DNA of 64,000 bases from Peltaster fructicola. Its lineage: Eukaryota > Ascomycota > Dothideomycetes. The notes below the pieces were generated by a model. The model did no database searches, was not told where the DNA came from, and saw only the letters and a program-made list of their open reading frames with translations. Shown here piece by piece: positions 7,489 through 30,382 of this stretch. The position numbers and the translations under genes were made by a program. Within the stretch, counting starts at the first letter, position 1; every line of letters begins with the position of its first letter. Where the stretch lies: positions 1,302,001 to 1,366,000 of the forward strand of contig CP051141.1 in the NCBI GenBank assembly GCA_001592805.2, written 5' to 3'.

Positions 7489-8273
7489 CTTGACAGAGCT
7501 TGAGCTATGAAGCTGTAGGTTATTGTGGTTGTCCCAGCGGTGGCTTTACTTCAAGCACAAGTAGGACGCGTCGTGGAATCTTAATGACAGGAAGCAGATC
7601 TGGTGTTGTCTGACGAATAACAAGAGATGCGTTGTGTCGTGATAGTGATATGTTAACGGTAGGCAGCGTAGGTGACGAGTGAAGCTGCTCGCAGCTCATG
7701 AATCATGCAGGTTAGTCTCTTAGTCATCATCCTGACTCGTGTATCATCGTGCGTCACTGCCATCGTCTCACTTTCATACATGTACTCTCGGTGGTGTTCA
7801 CGCTCTACATCTCAGCAACGACAGCTGACAGCTGCATAGCTGTTTACTTGTGAAACGGCAACGTGTGCATGATGCGTCATTTCTGGCTTCAGTCTCAATA
7901 GGCACTTCTACACGGAATCCACGATCATCCAACAACACACACCATGGTGCTCGCAAGCCCAAAGAATTGCAAAGGCAGGCAGGTCAGAGACCCACCAGAG
8001 AAGCATCTTTGTGGAGGTAAGGACAGTCTACGCAGCCATCGAGACCTCTGTCGACGGTCATGCGTCTTTAGCCACGAAACCTAGATGATTACTATAGCGT
8101 AAGACACTTGACTACATTCTACACGACACCGAAGCCGCCAACATCAGAGCTGCTGATGCCGGCATGCCAGCTACCTGCCATGACAGTCCTGATGGCATGC
8201 CCGATAAGATTTCAGAGTAAAATGCTCCTGAAACGCTCTTCTACTTCCGCTTGATCCGCATCCCGGCGTACTC
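7489..8273. other. Divergent intergenic region between UMP1 and the MFS transporter
   Basis: About 800 bases carrying both promoters. I see no conserved coding frame, repeat or RNA gene. UMP1 promoters in yeast carry a PACE element (GGTGGCAAA); I did not find an exact copy. Confidence 0.55.
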
Positions 8274-21565: not shown

Positions 21566-21946
21566 TCAGTATGCCATCATTCTACTACTCAAGTCTGACT
21601 TACAATCAAGGTAGTCAGCTGCCATAAGCACCTCGAGGACACTCTCCAGTGGTAGATCGAGATCTGGCGCGTCCTTGGTGTCAAGGTACTTCTCTTTGTG
21701 GTATAGATACTGAGCCACGACTTCAAGTGTCTCGCCACTGCTTGAAGTCAGTCTCCTCTGACATCTGAGCTCAGCTAGGACGTACGTGATGTTCTCGAAT
21801 CGAATCATGTTTGTCTTCGACTCTGCAAAACCTCGTGAGACGTCCAGCATTCCCTTCAGTGTGTGGCTGACGTTGGCAGCCGATCGCTTGACGACGAACG
21901 AGAAACCATCGTTGGAGACAAGTGTGATATAGTTGGTCTCAGCCAT
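21566..21946 (-). CDS. elc1: Elongin C (Skp1-like BTB/POZ fold)
   Basis: Small adaptor that joins elongin A or VHL/SOCS-box-like receptors to a cullin, or acts in RNA polymerase II turnover. Residues MAETNYITLVSNDGFSFVVK and the segment HTLKGMLDVSRGFAESKTNM match the family (YVKLISSDGHEFIVKR and TIKAMLSGPG in animals). A 5'-GTACGT intron of about 45 nt inside codon Thr of ENIT joins directly to GETLEVVAQYLYHKEKYLD, and the conserved end is LESVLEVLMAADYLDC. The stop at 21566 reads a few residues past the usual end; an alternative final intron with donor GTAAGT right after DYLD would end the protein a few residues later near 21.55 kb. Either way ~105-110 residues, normal for the family. Confidence 0.9.
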   Translation of the reverse strand: MAETNYITLVSNDGFSFVVKRSAANVSHTLKGMLDVSRGFAESKTNMIRFENITYVLAELRCQRRLTSSSGETLEVVAQYLYHKEKYLDTKDAPDLDLPLESVLEVLMAADYLDCKSDLSSRMMAY

Positions 21947-23195
21947 GATGAGCTGTGTGCTGACAGGATACTTGTATCGCTTATCACCATTCGGCGGTCT
22001 GATGCGTATAGAGGCAAGAATTGATTACCGGCAGTCGACTATAGGAGAGCACAAGGTGAGGTTATGATTTGAGCCGTTTCTGACTCCAGGCTTCTTTGGT
22101 TGAGGAGGCTCGGCACGAGAATTCGCTCCTGTGCGGTGACGGCATGCCTACTTTGCATCTACATGTACATCAACCTCACACCAACAACTCATCAATTATC
22201 CATCGTATCACGATTCAGCAAGACCGCAGCAGCATGCTCAAGGGGCTTATTGATGTCTGCAGCATCAGCTATGAGGCGTCGTCAAGAATGCCTCCTTAGT
22301 GCCGACCTACCTCTCCCACGCAATCAGCACGACCAACACTTCATCAACTCTGTTTGATCACGTATCGCCGTAATGCTCTACGATGTGTTTAAAGTCTCCT
22401 GAGCGCTTCCATGTAGCGCTACTTGATCCAGAGCACTCAAGTTACATACTTGCGGACATTGATGCAAGGAGTTTTACTTGGTAAGAGATTACTCACTGCA
22501 GTCCTGGAGGTCCTCACGAAACGATCAGTCTCCACACATTCGCAATGGCGCCGGGATACGAAGTGATTAGCTGGTGTGCAGAAGCGCTGATCTGGCCGGA
22601 TCACCGTATGAGCGTGGGTCAAGTTGTCTGTAAGACGTGACGGCCCTACGCGTGTTCTGCACTTTCTGTTTACTTGTCGAACCACTACATCGGAAAGGTT
22701 CCCTCCTGTGACATCCTCGACACCAGCTCACCTGTCATCCGTCTATCACAAGGCGATGAAGCGAGGCCGACCGCACACTGCACAACAGACGCCCTTTTGC
22801 ATCAGCGTATCTGCTCAAAGTACCTAGATGTACTTGTACGAGGCTAGCACCGTCGAGATTTGTGCTTAAACGCCCATCAATGATGGCTAGCTGTTAGTCC
22901 AAGGCGATGTTGGCCTATTTCCACCTCGCTGGTACTACTCAATGGCAGAATTCCTGCAGCCTCTTCGTCGGGACTTTCTTAAACCATCCACTGGCCAAGC
23001 CTCTCTCAACCCTTGCTCATACTTATGATTCTCGAGCGCGTTATACTGTCACCATCGTGGGATCCTCATATCAGAGCATTCCTGAACACTCCACTCAGGA
23101 AACATCCAATTTAGTATAAGATATGGCCGCCGAGAGAACAAATTTGAGCATCACACACAGGTCGCAGGCCAAACATTCGTTCATTCGGCACGACC
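21947..23195. other. Intergenic region upstream of the giant surface protein
   Basis: About 1.25 kb. It holds the elongin C promoter and the long upstream region of the surface-protein gene. Several short frames, none convincing. Long upstream regions are common for regulated adhesin genes; no motif is claimed apart from the TATA-like site at 23116. Confidence 0.5.
23116..23122 (+). promoter_or_regulatory. TATA-like element of the giant surface-protein gene
   Basis: TATAAGA 74 nt upstream of the ATG at 23196, a usual distance for a TATA-driven fungal gene. Confidence 0.45.
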
Positions 23196-26100
23196 ATGGC
23201 ATTCATTCGTTCATGTTTATATGCGTTGTCTGCTGTTCCTGCACTTACTATTGCGACGCAGAGTCAGGATCTGCAGAAACGAGACTCGATCATAGCAGCT
23301 AGCTTGCGAGACACTGTCAGCGCACTCCAGCTTGGTGCAACAAATGCCCTCACGACCGTTCCTGTGGGCATCGTCGACTGGCTGTCAGGAGCCGGTCCTC
23401 ATGCCATTTACGGCAACATCAACAACTATGGTACCATACTCATTAGTCAGACAGATGCACTCACGACACCCAGTGGAGATGGTGTCCAGTGGCAGGGAAC
23501 ATCCACGGATGGCAGCCTTCGCAACTTTGCCGGCAGCTCCTTCATACTAAACGACGCTTCCGCCTCGACACCTTCAACGTACAACTTGATTCTCTCATCT
23601 CTCGAGAACAATGGAACTATGCAGCTCTGTGGTCCCGTGGGCAGCGCTATCAACCTCTGGTGTAATAGTGCGGACTGCTACAATGGTGGTCTCATCGTTT
23701 TCGAGCAGGTCAGAGGCTCTGCGAACACCGCTTCGATGTACTTCCGAAACGAGGTGCAGGCTGCTGCCCCTGCTGCGCAGAACATTATCAACAATGGTGG
23801 TGTTCTGATGCGCAGCGCTCGTGTTGACTTCACTCAAAACATTCTCGGCACTGGTTGCTACATGATGAGTAACAGCGCAGTCATGTTCTTGCAAAGTGGT
23901 GTTGGCACAAATCAGAACACTGCTGGAACGCCTGCTCTGAATGGCCAATCCATCTACTTCGTCGATGGCACTGCAGCAATGCACATCGAACAGGGCGTCT
24001 ACAGCGGCATCAGCTCGACCTTTGGCCCAAGGCTATACAATTTTGGCGCCGGTAATGCCATCGAGTTTGCTCAAACCATCACTGCAGTCACTTACAGCGC
24101 AGTGACTGGTCTCGTTACTGTCAACTTGGGTGTAAGCAACACTCTGAACATCCTTGTCGGTGCGGGCTACGTCCCAACCGGCTTCATCATTGGATCACAC
24201 GACGGGTACAACGCTGTCCTCTACAATGCTGCTGCGCCAGCGCTAGCAGCAACACCTCCGGCAGTCTGTCTTTTGACGACTCCTGCCTGTGCGATACTCC
24301 CAGCGGCAGTGTCTAGTTCCTCTGTTGTATCACATTCCAGCGCCGCTGCTACGTCCAGTGCCGCTGCAGCGAAACAATGGGGGCGGACTCGGAGCTGGCC
24401 TCGGAGGAGGTGTCGGAGGTATCGTTGGAGGCGGCGTCACCATCAACTTGCCAACCAGCGCCATTGGACTTCCATCTGTCTCACTGGGGCTCTCGGTGGC
24501 ACTCCCTTCGGTGGGGCTCTCCCTGCCTGCCCTCTCGGTATCAGTCCCATCAGTAGCGGTCTCTGTCCCGGCAGTATCAATCCCTTCAGTAGCGGTCTCG
24601 ATTCCCTCTCTTGCACTGTCAGTCCCATCATTGGCTGTCTCCGTGCCATCGATCTCAGTGCCACCTGTGGTGGTCTCGGTCCCTTCAATCTCGGTCCCTC
24701 TGGAGACGCTCTCTGTCCCATCGATATCACTTCCTCCAGTGGTCGTTTCGATCCCATCGTTATCGATTCCTTCAGTGGCTGTCTCTGTTCCGTCAATTTC
24801 GATTCCTTTGGAGACGCTCTCTCTCCCGGCCGTCTCGCTTCCATCAGTGGCCGTCTCAATTCCACCGATCTCGGTGCCCTCCGTGGCTATCTCGATTCCG
24901 TCGATCCCGTCGATCTCAGTGCCTTCGGCGGCCCTTTCGATTCCATCACTATCACTTCCTTCTGAAGTTGTCTCGATCCCGTCCATTTCGCTGCCTTCGG
25001 TGGCCATCCCGATCCCGCCTGTTTCGATTGAGTCGATATCCATCCCGGCGATCTCGATTCCATCAATATCACTTCCTTCTGAAGTTGTCTCGGTCCCGTC
25101 CATTTCGCTGCCTTCCGTGGCCATCCCGGTCCCGCCTCTTTCGATTGAGTCGATATCCATCCCGGCGATCTCAATCCCACCCAACTCGGTACCCTCAGTG
25201 GGAGTCGGTCTTCCTAGTATCAGTTTGCCGGCGATATCTGTGCCGATATCGAGCATCCTAGAACCTATACTCAGCGACGTCTCTGGCCTGCTCAATCCAA
25301 CCCTCAGCAATCCCGGTCTCAACCTGCCAACGCTCTCAGTTCCAGCAATCTCGGTTCCTTCGATCACCCTCGGCATTCCAAGCTTAAGCTTGCCATCAGT
25401 CAGTGTTCCAGATTTGAGTGTGCCAGCTCTATCGCTCTCACTCCCAGCTGTGAGCTTGCCATCAGTCAGTGTTCCAGATTTGAGCGTGCCAGCTCTATCG
25501 CTCTCACTCCCAGCTGTGAGCTTGCCATCCCTGTCGTTGACAATCCCAGCTGTGGGTCTGCCGTCTCTCTCGATTCCTGCCATCGGCATCCCACCGATCG
25601 GACTTCCATCTGTTAGCGTCCCTGAGATCACGTTGTCACTGCCCAGCGTTGGTGTGCCTTCGCTCTCAGTCCCTGTCCTTAGCGAGCCTTCACTTGGACT
25701 TCCATCCATCAGCGTGCCTGGGCTTTCACTGTCACTACCAAGCATCGGTGTGCCTTCGCTCTCAGTTCCTGTCCTGAGCGAGCCTTCTCTTGGACTTCCA
25801 TCTATTAGCGTCCCTGGAATTCCACTATCACTGCCAAGCATCGGTGTGCCCTCACTCACCCTTCCAGCGATCAGTGAACCCTCTCTCGGACTTCCTTCTG
25901 TCAGTATTCCCGATGTTTCACTATCACTGCCAGTATCGAGCATCATCCAGCCTATTCTCAGCGACATCTCTGGTCTGCTCAACCCATCTATCAGCATTCC
26001 TGGGCTTTCATTACCGGTGCCTTCAATCACTGCTCCTGGCGTGTCCCTCCCAACTGTCGGTGTTCCACCAGTATCAGTACCAGTTGTCGGGATACCATCG

Positions 26101-28554
26101 GTCAGTATTCCTGGTCTTTCTCTGAGTGTGCCATCCGTTGGTGTACCTGGCATCTCGCTGAGTGTGCCTTCAGTGTCGATTCCCGGGCTCAGCGTGCCAT
26201 CAATTAGTGAGCCTGTCCTTCCAACTCTCAGTGTCCCTGGACTTTCCTTGGCCATCCCGTCACTCAGCGTGCCCGGTCTCTCAGTGGGCATCCCATCGAT
26301 CAGCCTTCCAGCGGTCTCGGTCCCATCTGTTGGCTTGCCATCAGTGTCAGTGCCAGGTATCAGCGTGCCCGCTCTATCACTACCGTCGGCCTCGATCCCG
26401 GGCCTTTCTATCCCAAGTGTCAGCCTTCCAGCAGTCTCGGTTCCATCTGTTGGCTTGCCATCAGTGTCAGTGCCAGGTATTAGTGTGCCCGCTCTATCAC
26501 TGCCATCGGTCTCGATCCCTGGCCTTTCTATCCCAAGTGTCAGCCTTCCAGCAGTCTCGGTCCCTACCATCAGCATTCCAAACGTCAGCCTGCCATCAAT
26601 ATCGATTCCAAGTATATCCATTCCGGGCATCGTTTTGCCATTCCCGGGTGCCTCAGTACCAGCTCAGGACTCACGTTCGGCTGCTGCGAGTGTATCGACC
26701 AGCAGCAGCGCACGAGCAAACACTGCATCTTCGATTTTGTCATCAGCCAGTTTACCAGCACTCTCTATCCCTTCGCTGCTCCCATCGTTCTCACTCAACC
26801 TTCCATCGGTTGGCGTATCTGTCGCGGACCAGCTCTCTGTCACACTCGGCATCTCCGTGGCGCCAATCGCAAGCGCTCTTCCATCCGTGGTACCACAAGT
26901 CTGCCCATCAGTCTTCTCTTGCTTGGCCACATCAACAAACTCGACCACATGTTTTAGCGGTAGCAGCTACTACGTTCAGTGTAGTCTTTTGATCCAGGGC
27001 ACACAATTGCAACAAGTGGTCGCGCCAAACTCGGACACTTGTTTTGCCACTTGCGCTGGAAATGCACTCTGCCAGGGTATTAACTTCTTCTCGAATGGTG
27101 TTTGCCAGCTGTACTCGTCAGTGGACAACTACATTCTCGCACCAGTCAACGGAGCATTTTCTGCACGTCGATTTGCTATCGCAGGTGTCAGCTCTCTGCC
27201 AAGTCTGCCTACAACGTCTGGAGTTGCATCAATACCAGTTGTTTCAGGAGTGTCTTCCGTCTTAGCTGTGTCACAGCAGTCCACACTACCTTCCGGTCTC
27301 TCCTCACTACCAATCGTTCCTGGCGTGAGCGTGACTTCTCTACCAGCAGTCACAGGTCTATCTTCTCTGCCAGCGATCTCAGCGTTGTCTTCACTTCCAG
27401 CAGTTTCAGGATTATCCTCATTGCCAGCAATCTCCGGGCTGTCTTCATTGCCAGCAATCTCAGCATTATCTTCGCTGCCAGCAGTCACTGCTCTCTCGCT
27501 GCCAGCGGTCTCAGGACTGTCTTCACTGCCAGCAGTTTCAGGACTATCCTCGCTTCCAGCAATTTCCGTGCCGTCTTCGTTGCCAGCAATCTCAGCATTA
27601 TCTTCGCTGCCAGCAGTCACTGCTCTCTCGCTGCCAGCGGTCTCAGGACTGTCTTCACTGCCAGCAGTTCCAGGACTATCCTCGCTTCCAGCAATTTCCG
27701 TGCCGTCTTCTCTACCATCAATCTCGGGACTATCATCCCTGCCAGCAGTCACTGCTCTCTCCTCGCTACCAGCACTTTCAGGATTATCTTCGCTGCCGGC
27801 AATCTCGAGATTGTCGACATCACTAGTCATCAGTGTTCCGTCACTCACAACTGCTTTGCCGACCATCTCGCCAAGCGCTTCATTGACGGTTGGCCAGATC
27901 ATTCCGTTCAGTGCGCTTTTTGCCACATCTACATGTGCACCAGCTCAAACAGCAACGCCATGTCCAGCTTGCGATGGAGCTGCATTGGGCCGTGCAGGCA
28001 GCGATTACAGCGTTCACTGTGCAGCTGCATACGTTGGACGACCTGTAGGATCCACCAAGAAGCGAGGCGTCGGCAAGTTCAGACGCCAGACTGCGTTGAC
28101 CTACCAGGACTGTATCACCGAGTGTGACGCCAGCACTAGCTGTCAAGCAGCATCCTTCAACACAGTTGATCAGTCGTGTACTCTGTACAGCTGTGTCGAG
28201 AACGGTATCTACGACCCGAACTCACAGGGTTACTACAAGCAGAGTGATGTCGACACAGTGGCTTGCAGCGTCAACGGCACTTCCTCTTCTGCCAGCAGTT
28301 TGTTCGGCGCAACCAGTCTTGGCGTCTCTGTTGTGGCACCTTCTACCGCATCAACTGTTGCTGCAGTCTCAGCTTCAGCTTCTGGATTGTCCAGCGTTGT
28401 AGCATCGATCTCAGCATCAGGTGTCGCACAGACGACTCTTGAAGGCATTGTCACAGTCTGTGGGCCAGATCATCTACCTCTGGGTGGCACAGTCTTCGTG
28501 ACTACGACCTACACTTCTATGGTCTCGCCACCTTTCTCCTCGACATCGGCTTGA
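23196..28554 (+). CDS. Giant repetitive cell-surface protein: Hyr1-like head, SxP pentapeptide and LSSLPA octapeptide repeats, two PAN/apple-like modules
   Basis: Predicted secreted, wall-associated adhesin-like protein of about 1770 residues. Signal peptide MAFIRSCLYALSAVPALTIA is followed by a Kex2-type KR. Residues ~50-370 look like the beta-helical head of hyphally regulated cell wall proteins (NNYGTILIS, ENNGTMQLCG, NFGAGNAIEF). After a Ser/Ala linker and a glycine run (GGGLGAGLGGGVGGIVGGG) come ~740 residues of S-[VIL]-P-x-[VIL] repeats, a six-Cys module (CFATCAGNALCQGINFFSNG), ~230 residues of GLSSLPAV-type repeats, and a second Cys-rich module (CITECDASTSCQAASFNTVD). The tail has no GPI-like hydrophobic end. 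The head and repeat frames differ by one base; a 43-nt GT-AG intron (24327-24369) joins them, or one base is wrong near 24.38 kb. Role in adhesion is inference. Confidence 0.8.
24327..24369 (+). other. Candidate 43-nt intron (or frame offset) joining head and repeat region of the surface protein
   Basis: GTATCA donor and GCTGCAG acceptor, phase 0, length 1 modulo 3, exactly what is needed to move from the head frame to the repeat frame. No good branch site is seen and the removed stretch encodes a plausible Ser/Ala linker in the head frame, so a single surplus base at about 24378-24386 (beside a run of five G) is an equally good explanation. Confidence 0.45.
24440..26665 (+). repeat. Coding repeat array 1: 15-nt units encoding S-[VIL]-P-x-[VIL]
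   Basis: About 2.2 kb of imperfect 15-nt units, with higher-order blocks. Examples of repeated longer segments are the near-identical copies around 26.29-26.41, 26.41-26.53 and 26.53-26.59 kb (each including the phrase LSIPSVSLPAVSVP) and the duplicated segment with LPSVSVPDLSVPALSLSLPA near 25.38-25.52 kb. The units are diverged enough to be distinguishable, so the array grew by block duplication rather than by single-unit slippage only. Confidence 0.9.
27187..27895 (+). repeat. Coding repeat array 2: 24-nt units encoding GLSSLPAV/I-S
   Basis: About 700 bp of 24-nt units, with a 132-nt higher-order duplication: the segment ending ...CAGCATTA at about 27468 recurs at 27600 and is followed by the same TALSLPAVSGLSSLPAV phrase. 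The grammar differs from array 1 (period 8 residues, not 5), so the two arrays expanded independently. Confidence 0.88.
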
Positions 28555-29045
28555 TTTGCCGCGACCTTGGGGATCAACAAACGCAATATGCCCTTCTCTG
28601 CTTCTGTATTCACGCAAAATAATAGCATGCCATGATCGAGGGCTTTTGAGCCGCTCAACAAACGGCCTGGAGTATAGGATATTTCGTTGTGCAGTATTAG
28701 ATATAACATAGCAATCAAACATGATGTCCATTCATTCTACAGTACATTCCGTGGTGTCCAGATTGATACGTTTGATAGATTTGCGAGATCGATCTGGTTA
28801 TACCAAACAGGTTCTTAGCGTTGGTGAGGCTCATGCAGCTCCAGCTTTCATGCATGTCGATGAGGCGAAAAAATGTCGGCTCCATCATCATTTCGATATC
28901 GATAGATACATGTACTGACTTGTTTCTCCATTTGAAGTGCATCAGAACGCCTTCCTACGAACCTGCGAACATCACTCCTTTGCTGACTGAATGTCGAAGA
29001 CGGTTGCGCGAGCAGCGCTTGCTGGACCACTTTCATCAGCACAAC
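28555..29045. other. Intergenic region between surface-protein gene and COQ1
   Basis: About 490 bases with the 3' flank of the surface-protein gene and the COQ1 promoter. No gene seen. Confidence 0.5.
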
Positions 29046-30382
29046 ATGCGAAGCATCTCTGTCCCTGGCTGCGCCCGGCCGATAGCACACTCCATCCTGC
29101 GCGCGAAACATCCCAGACAAGTCAATGGCTTACAGATACGGCATCAATCAGCGGTGGCAGCAGCTGTGACGGCAGCGAAATCGTTGTTCTCCAATGGCCT
29201 ACCTCCTCCCGGACCCATGGGCATTGATCCATTGCGAGGTGTCGCGAAAGAGATGAAACAGATGACTGGACATATACGGCAGCTGTTAGGATCAGGGCAT
29301 CCAATGCTAGACACCGTCTCGAAGTACTATACACAAAGCGAGGGCAAATACGTCAGACCAATGCTGGTGCTGTTAATGTCACAGGCTACAGCATTGATGC
29401 CGAAGGAGCAACGAGACACCTTCGAACGAGCTGGCATAGACACGCCGATCTCTTCAGAGTCAATCCTTTCAGACTCAAACCCATCCTCTTCCATCACAGA
29501 CTTCTCCGACTCTGCTGCACACACGCAGACGGACGTCCTGCCATCACAACGCAGGTTAGCAGAAATAACAGAGCTCATACACACGGCATCGCTTCTTCAC
29601 GACGATGTGATCGACACCTCCTTCTCGCGCCGTGGCAACCCATCGGCGAATATTGCTTTCGGAAACAAGATGGCTGTATTGGCTGGCGATTTCCTCCTAG
29701 GACGAGCATCCGTTGCATTGGCACGTTTGCGGGATCCGGAAGTGACAGAGCTGCTGGCGACGGTGATTGCCAATCTTGTGGAAGGAGAGTTCATGCAGTT
29801 GAAGAATACTGCGCTCGACGAGAAATATCCGGTCTGGAGCGAGGACACGATCACATACTACCTACAGAAGACATACCTGAAGAGCGCCTCTTTGATCAGC
29901 AAATCTTGTCGATCAGCGGCCCTGCTAGGAGAGCAGTCGAAAGAGGTGGTAGAGGCTGCATATCAGTATGGCAAGAACCTTGGACTTGCGTTCCAGCTTG
30001 TCGATGACATGCTCGACTATACAGTCAGCGGACAAGAGCTTGGAAAGCCAGCAGGCGCAGATCTCGAGCTCGGCCTGGCCACGGCACCGCTGATCTTTGC
30101 ATGGAAGAACAACAGTGAGCTTGGCACGCTTGTCGGTCGGAAGTTCTCGCAAGATGGAGATGTCCAGAGGGTAGGTCTCGTTCATCCAGCGATAATTCAT
30201 TCCTTCTAATGACTTATTAGGCACGAGAAATCGTCATTGAGAGCGATGGTCTCGCGCAGACAAGAGCTCTCGCTCAGGATTATGTTGACAAAGCCGCCCA
30301 GGCTATTAGCTTCTTCCCAGACAGCGATGCTAAGAACGGCCTTATAGATATGTGCTCGAAAGTCATGCAGCGAAGGAAGTGA
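29046..30382 (+). CDS. coq1: Mitochondrial polyprenyl diphosphate synthase (COQ1), ubiquinone side chain
   Basis: Trans-prenyltransferase that extends farnesyl/geranylgeranyl diphosphate with isopentenyl diphosphate to make the ubiquinone tail, in the mitochondrial matrix. The ATG at 29046 opens a basic, Ser-rich targeting peptide (MRSISVPGCARPIAHSILRA). The two Asp-rich motifs are LLHDDVID (first) and QLVDDMLDY (second), with GKYVRPMLVLLMSQA and LVEGEFMQLKNT between or before them. An insertion of about 50 Ser-rich residues sits before the first motif, as in fungal homologues. One intron of about 47 nt near 30.17-30.22 kb joins DVQR to AREIVIESDGLAQTR; the stop is at 30380-30382. About 428 residues. 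Upstream frame is open but the ATG at 29046 gives the best presequence. Confidence 0.93.

What the first reader, a model, noticed from the sequence alone, without database searches (positions are those of the whole stretch)
23196..28554. Giant chimeric surface protein with an unfamiliar domain order
One locus encodes a signal peptide with Kex2-type site, a beta-helical head like hyphally regulated wall proteins, a glycine run, ~740 residues of S-[VIL]-P pentapeptides, a PAN/apple-like Cys module, ~230 residues of GLSSLPAV octapeptides and a second Cys module. I know of Hyr/Iff-type adhesins with Ser/Thr or Gly repeats and of fungal PAN-domain proteins, but not of this combination. The hydrophobic SxP repeats are not the usual hydrophilic glycosylated stalk and could form a stiff rod or a self-associating fibre. 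The Cys modules may bind glycan or protein. This is the best candidate in the window for an undescribed system.
Basis: partly seen in the sequence, partly recalled or inferred. Interest (0 to 1): 0.75.

Follow-up and report, generated by a model that had tools for sequence, protein, structure and literature searches.

The report
Large stalked fungal surface protein gene
An apple-surface fungus appears to carry a gene for a very long secreted surface protein with an adhesin-like head, a greasy proline-rich stalk and two binding-type modules; it looks like an unusual member of a known kind of surface protein rather than a new system.

Summary
The features are real. The window lies in an 18.99-Mb, 5-contig genome that matches Peltaster fructicola, a fungus of apple wax. 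The head matches PF11765 (E 4.3e-28); the tail holds two PAN/apple modules and two arrays, of 736 and 237 residues.

One correction matters: head and tail lie in different reading frames that meet near 24,370. The deposited gene model (AMS68_004375, 353 aa) holds only the head. The tail has no start of its own: its 1,425 residues hold one Met, at position 1415. So one gene is likely, interrupted by a sequence error, a real shift or an odd intron; this is unproven.

It is not isolated: the genome has 27 PAN_1 matches (20 above cut-off), some in six other ORFs of 1,029-3,233 codons. Three of six GLEYA-adhesin ORFs also hold a PAN match, two of them below cut-off.

Most likely it is a secreted, non-GPI, wall- or matrix-bound adhesin-like protein. 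The combination and the hydrophobic stalk look unusual, but "undescribed system" is too strong. Function is inferred.

The parts
23196..23282 (+). N-terminal signal-peptide-like stretch ending in KR (residues 28-29), a Kex2-type site (motif recalled)
   Evidence: sequence, dibasic scan; no signal-peptide predictor was run
23418..24272 (+). Head: PF11765 Hyphal_reg_CWP domain, residues 75-359, profile positions 54-319 of 328
   Evidence: 98.6 bits, E 4.3e-28; only PF11765 match in the genome
24273..24372 (+). Ser/Ala-rich linker in the head frame, up to the place where head and tail frames meet (about 24,350-24,385)
   Evidence: frames; codon usage does not settle the place
24373..24438 (+). 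Glycine run, first part of the tail frame (ORF 24277-28554)
24439..26646 (+). Array 1: 736 residues, 90 S-[VIL]-P motifs at spacings of 5 and 7, no K/R/H, GRAVY 1.12
26647..26892 (+). Ser-rich spacer, 82 residues
26902..27171 (+). PAN/apple module 1 (Pfam match 26995-27126)
   Evidence: PAN_1 24.0 bits, 22.1 bits; alignment A1
27181..27891 (+). Array 2: 237 residues, period 9, GRAVY 1.04
27961..28236 (+). PAN/apple module 2 with two dibasic pairs in the loop between its second and third aligned Cys (Pfam match 28090-28194)
   Evidence: PAN_1 22.3 bits, 20.2 bits as a piece; alignment A1
28237..28554 (+). Ser/Thr-rich C-terminus and stop; no GPI-type hydrophobic tail seen by eye

Best explanation
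Most likely one gene for a secreted, wall- or matrix-bound adhesin-like protein of about 1,780 residues: a Hyr/Iff/Awp-type head joined to a stalk-plus-PAN tail of a kind that this fungus uses in several giant proteins. After secretion and trimming by a Kex2-type protease, the head would be displayed on a long, stiff, hydrophobic Pro/Ser-rich stalk, and the two PAN modules would hold the protein to wall or matrix glycan or protein in place of a GPI anchor. The hydrophobic stalk would suit contact with apple wax. Shown: domains, arrays, their order on one strand, no start codon for the tail. Inferred: head and tail in one protein, secretion, adhesion, anchoring by PAN, contact with wax.
For: PF11765 head at E 4.3e-28; reading on in the head frame fits the profile better than the deposited splice, 98.6 against 88.0 bits; tail of 1,425 codons with one Met at 1415; repeat copies in array 1 differ mostly at third codon positions, e.g. 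27/8/63 at lag 12; 15 aligned modules share six invariant Cys and as a profile retrieve factor XI, kallikrein, SML-2 and MIC4 apple domains, best E 8.7e-11; three of six GLEYA-adhesin ORFs of this genome also hold a PAN match. Published relatives: Awp1/Awp3b wall adhesins with beta-helix heads (PMC8746771, section 6 and passages); two-PAN wall protein Ss-Sl2 (PMC3338822, passages); the fungus lives in epicuticular wax (PMC4786788, passages).
Against: Different frames for head and tail and a deposited model with the head alone. No transcript evidence here. No relative of either piece beyond the head's own record in three protein searches, which were capped. Genome searches with module 1 found only itself, with module 2 itself and one weak match (E 0.0095); a search with the last module of L027 did not list the window. 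Two of the three PAN matches in GLEYA ORFs are below cut-off, and hmmscan of the L031 ORF listed GLEYA but no PAN at E 0.01. Adhesion and anchoring are not tested.
Confidence: 0.55

Rival explanations
1. The gene is broken in this strain: a former fusion gene lost its frame near 24,370, only a short secreted head of about 350-400 residues is made, and the tail is decaying.
For: Frame change without a canonical intron; deposited model of 353 aa.
Against: The tail is still open for 1,425 codons and its repeat copies differ mostly at third positions, unlike an old pseudogene; the assembly is Nanopore-based, so a residual error is possible.
Confidence: 0.17
2. The arrays, not the head, are the working part: the hydrophobic Ser-x-Pro polypeptide associates with itself or with wax as a water-repellent coat or fibre on hyphae, the head and PAN modules serving only assembly.
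For: GRAVY 1.12 and 1.04, with 17 and 1 charged residues (K, R, H, D, E) in 736 and 237; life in epicuticular wax (PMC4786788, passages).
Against: Pro at 19% hinders beta-sheet stacking (general knowledge); no dibasic site inside the arrays to free peptides; not testable here.
Confidence: 0.12
3. Two separate genes: the head is a short secreted protein as deposited, and the tail belongs to another transcript whose start exon was not recognised.
For: Deposited model ends at the stop 24314-24316; different frames.
Against: One Met in the tail, at residue 1415; no other start exon is evident between, although none was searched for systematically; the deposited splice lowers the PF11765 score.
Confidence: 0.1

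Closest known systems
Hyr1/Iff (Candida albicans), Awp1-Awp4 (C. glabrata), Hpf1 (S. cerevisiae): IPR021031/PF11765 head proteins (PMC8746771, section 6 and passages)
   Same: N-terminal PF11765 head above the curated cut-off, followed by a long repetitive stalk
   Different: Filamentous Dothideomycete, while the paper's figure legend puts most fungal members in Saccharomycetes; hydrophobic Pro-rich stalk; PAN modules; no GPI-type tail seen
Ss-Sl2 of Sclerotinia sclerotiorum (PMC3338822, passages)
   Same: Secreted protein with two PAN modules; there on the cell wall and needed for cellular integrity
   Different: No PF11765 head or giant arrays are mentioned in the passages seen; no direct sequence comparison was made here
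Giant PAN-bearing ORFs of the same genome (L026-L031; GLEYA ORFs of 3,233, 2,168 and 1,931 codons)
   Same: Long low-complexity stalk with PAN modules; module 2 is 37% identical over 94 residues to the last module of L027 and 36% over 88 to that of L026 in single comparisons, E 2e-9 and 4e-8
   Different: No PF11765 head; Ser/Thr-rich stalks; in the GLEYA ORFs PAN lies upstream of the adhesin domain, the reverse order (positions)
Apple-domain lectins SML-2 (Sarcocystis) and MIC4 (Toxoplasma)
   Same: Same module family by profile match, E 3.5e-7 and 2.2e-6; also the top six Foldseek rows, but none significant (E 0.38 and above)
   Different: No shared head or stalk is known to me; sugar binding by the window modules is untested

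Membership tests
Hyr1/Iff/Awp1 (PF11765) adhesin family | PF11765 head near the N-terminus | tested here: met
   98.6 bits against cut-off 28
Hyr1/Iff/Awp1 (PF11765) adhesin family | Beta-helix fold of the head | tested here: inconclusive
   Single-sequence model, mean pLDDT 36.4; no meaningful PDB sequence match
Hyr1/Iff/Awp1 (PF11765) adhesin family | GPI anchor signal at the C-terminus (as in the GPI-CWPs of PMC8746771) | tested here: not met
   No hydrophobic C-terminal tail by hydropathy and by eye; no GPI predictor was run
Hyr1/Iff/Awp1 (PF11765) adhesin family | Adhesion activity | not testable with these tools
   needs protein or a mutant
PAN/apple module proteins | PAN_1 match above cut-off | tested here: met
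   24.0 and 22.3 bits against 21.4; module 2 as a cut-out piece 20.2, below it
PAN/apple module proteins | Conserved four to six Cys core | tested here: met
   Six Cys columns invariant in 15 modules; profile retrieves known apple domains
PAN/apple module proteins | PAN fold | tested here: inconclusive
   Model pLDDT 52.7; top six PDB rows are PAN lectins but best E is 0.38
Single fused protein (head + stalk + PAN) | Head and tail on one transcript in one reading | tested here: inconclusive
   Different frames; tail has no start of its own; no canonical joining intron among the 40 best of 580; no transcript data

The most novel reading that the evidence does not exclude
A plant-surface fungus has rebuilt a Hyr-type adhesin for life on wax: the usual hydrophilic glycosylated stalk and GPI anchor are replaced by a long hydrophobic Ser-x-Pro rod that itself binds wax, and by PAN modules that hold the protein in the wall or matrix and can be nicked by Kex2 in one loop. 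It would be one of several head-swapped members of a giant PAN-stalk family.
Probability: 0.15. Interest if true: 0.6.

Novelty: new variant of a known kind. Interest (0 to 1): 0.35.

Why it matters
If head and tail are one protein, the Hyr/Iff/Awp head, described mainly in yeast wall proteins, also sits on PAN-bearing, hydrophobic-stalked proteins of a filamentous plant-surface fungus. That gives a testable idea of how such fungi hold on to wax without entering the host, and it warns that giant repeat genes of this genome may be truncated in the deposited annotation.

Tried and rejected
Homologues. The head alone (candidates of about 214-680 aa) found only its own deposited model. Residues 760-1394 of the tail (candidates of about 767-2440 aa) found none. 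The head with candidates of about 605-1925 aa found none. Each search scored only 7,990-7,997 candidates sharing most words; low-complexity words may have crowded out true relatives, and the region included array 2, a poor choice. Absence elsewhere is therefore not shown.

Families and solved structures. NCBIfam gave nothing useful. The head against PDB sequences gave two antibody chains at E 0.14 and 0.66.

Folds. Head model pLDDT 36.4, not searched further. Module 2 with module 1 as its only partner, pLDDT 52.7; PDB matches suggestive only.

Introns. Of 580 GT/GC-AG candidates of 40-399 nt that keep the tail open, none of the 40 best ranked has a CTRAY branch site. A 43-nt candidate at 24327-24369 fits the short introns of this species (published median 50 nt) but has no such site. 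By eye, the neighbouring polyprenyl synthase gene shows a canonical 50-nt intron. Codon usage did not settle the junction: all three frames score poorly around 24,290-24,350, and the third frame scores well at places on either side.

Dibasic loop. A relaxed pattern gave 4 of 15 modules; one of the 15 was a spurious reverse-strand match, and the pattern missed both window modules and one of L027. The count used is from alignment A1: 6 of 15 modules, 7 dibasic pairs in 346 loop residues and 1 in 1,012 others. The modules were picked by pattern, not sampled, so this is only suggestive.

Kinship of module 2. The E-values are for single comparisons; genome searches in either direction did not list these pairs.

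Enzyme-like parts that I thought I saw in L026 and L029 were not reported by Pfam; nothing is claimed.

Full report
WHERE IT IS. The window is bases 1,302,001-1,366,000 of contig 3 of a genome of 18,987,130 bases in five contigs. The head matches AMS68_004375 of Peltaster fructicola at 100% identity over 87% of the query, and the published assembly of that species has 18.99 Mb and five chromosomes (PMC7181583, abstract and passages). The species lives in the epicuticular wax of apple without entering cells (PMC4786788, passages).

THE OBSERVATION. A frame from ATG 23196 encodes a hydrophobic N-terminus, KR at residues 28-29 and a PF11765 domain, E 4.3e-28. A second frame, 24277-28554, 1,425 codons, encodes a Gly run, array 1 (736 residues), a Ser-rich spacer, PAN module 1, array 2 (237 residues, period 9), PAN module 2 and a Ser/Thr-rich C-terminus. 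The arrays are not chance: 90 S-[VIL]-P motifs in array 1 against a shuffle mean of 14.2 and maximum of 26, and 25 in array 2 against 3.0 and 9, 1000 shuffles each.

THE FRAME BREAK. They meet at about 24,350-24,385. The deposited model (353 aa) has a different end, as if an intron began in the last part of the head, and stops at 24314-24316. Reading on in the head frame fits PF11765 better, 98.6 against 88.0 bits, so that intron is doubtful. No canonical intron joins the frames among the 40 best of 580 candidates. A pattern for canonical short introns has 62 matches on the plus strand of the window (83 on the minus strand) and none that starts at 23,101-28,599 on the plus strand. The pattern is loose and repeats are biased in composition, so this is weak support. 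The tail has one Met, at residue 1415, so it has no plausible start of its own. The assembly is Nanopore-based with later polishing. I judge a residual sequence error or a real shift likelier than an atypical intron, and one gene likelier than two. This is inference.

WHICH STRAND. Array 1 also has a 777-codon frame on the minus strand. Copies of the repeats differ mostly at third positions of the plus frame (for example 27/8/63 for positions 1/2/3 at lag 12), but these are third positions of the minus frame too, so the test shows protein-level constraint without naming the strand. The plus strand is favoured by the PAN modules in the same frame and by Ser of S-[VIL]-P being coded by both TCN (64) and AGY (26), which one base change cannot interchange.

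RELATIVES IN THE GENOME. PF11765 occurs once, and a search with 214 residues of array 1 found 6 matches, all in this ORF. PAN is common: 27 PAN_1 matches at E up to 1, 20 above cut-off, and 25 PAN_4 matches at E up to 0.1. Besides the window's own ORF, six ORFs of at least 1,029 codons hold PAN_1 matches (1,740, 1,029, 3,233, 1,443, 1,547 and 1,931 codons), with Ser-, Thr-, Pro- and Ala-rich stretches. Fourteen modules found by a pattern plus window module 1, which I added, align with six invariant Cys. As a profile they retrieve factor XI, kallikrein, SML-2 and MIC4 apple domains, so they are PAN modules. In single comparisons module 2 is 37% identical over 94 residues to the last module of L027 and 36% over 88 to that of L026; these two are 39% identical over 92 to each other. 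Against this, genome searches gave weaker results: module 1 found only itself, module 2 found itself and one match at E 0.0095, and the L027 module found 14 places, the window not among them. So the kinship is that of one module family, not of recent copies.

A SHARED PLAN. GLEYA, another fungal adhesin domain, matches at seven places in six ORFs. Three of these (3,233, 2,168 and 1,931 codons) also hold a PAN match: PAN_1 23.3 bits, above cut-off; PAN_4 19.8 bits and PAN_1 20.5 bits, below. hmmscan of the 1,931-codon ORF listed GLEYA but no PAN at E up to 0.01, and part of the 3,233-codon ORF gave PAN_1 at 18.3 bits, below cut-off; the alignment with its Cys pattern speaks for both. So adhesin domain plus stalk plus PAN probably recurs in this genome, with the PAN on the other side. 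Six of 15 modules carry a dibasic, Kex2-type pair in the same loop, module 2 among them.

WHAT IT LIKELY DOES. IPR021031, the family of this head, is a subset of a network of Awp1-type wall adhesins whose solved heads are beta-helices (PMC8746771, section 6 and passages). Ss-Sl2, with two PAN modules, lies on the Sclerotinia wall and is needed for cellular integrity; silenced strains kept their virulence (PMC3338822, passages). Array 1 has GRAVY 1.12, against 0.09-0.57 for six other giant PAN ORFs; those values are for whole ORFs or parts of them, so the comparison is rough. If array 1 is extended as polyproline II, at about 0.31 nm per residue (recalled), it would span some 230 nm. No GPI-type tail is seen, so PAN modules, disulphides or the stalk itself would have to hold the protein at the surface. 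All of this is inference.

COMPARISON AND NOVELTY. The locus meets the head criterion of the Hyr/Iff/Awp family and the PAN criterion, not the GPI criterion. In the library no paper held 'Hyphal_reg_CWP' with 'PAN', or 'hyphally regulated' with 'PAN domain' and 'fung'; three held 'PF11765' (listing only); one held 'PAN domain', 'adhesin', 'fungal' and 'GLEYA', as separate entries of secretome tables (passages). Further listings showed no such combination in title or opening of abstract; those papers were not read except PMC3338822 and PMC8746771. Subscription journals are largely missing from the library. The combination may be undescribed, but its parts and plan are known. I call it a new variant of a known kind, interest 0.35.

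Noticed in passing
C3:438000-447999 (L031), C3:714557-723703, C2:258610-264576 of G000: Giant ORFs with GLEYA adhesin domains and PAN matches, PAN upstream of GLEYA; two of the three PAN matches are below cut-off.
   Followed up: partly
PAN modules of window 27961-28236, L026, L027, L028, L030, L031: A dibasic Kex2-type pair in the loop between the second and third aligned Cys in 6 of 15 modules, rare elsewhere in them; could mean nicked, disulphide-held modules.
   Followed up: partly
L027 (G000:C4:2126000-2135999), about 2389-2789: Two long overlapping open frames (929 and 1,029 codons) meet inside a Ser-rich repeat: another giant gene whose frame changes, by intron or by sequence error.
   Followed up: no
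L036 (G000:C3:1676000-1685999): An ORF with three WSC matches lies upstream of ORFs with PAN-like modules on the same strand; whether one gene was not tested.
   Followed up: no
window 28779-30209 and 21566-22024 (minus): Neighbours: a polyprenyl synthase (PF00348, 218.2 bits) and a short ORF with a Skp1_POZ match just above cut-off (23.2 bits against 21.9); no functional link seen.
   Followed up: no
window 24330-26663 (minus): A 777-codon open frame opposite array 1, judged a by-product of the repeats.
   Followed up: partly
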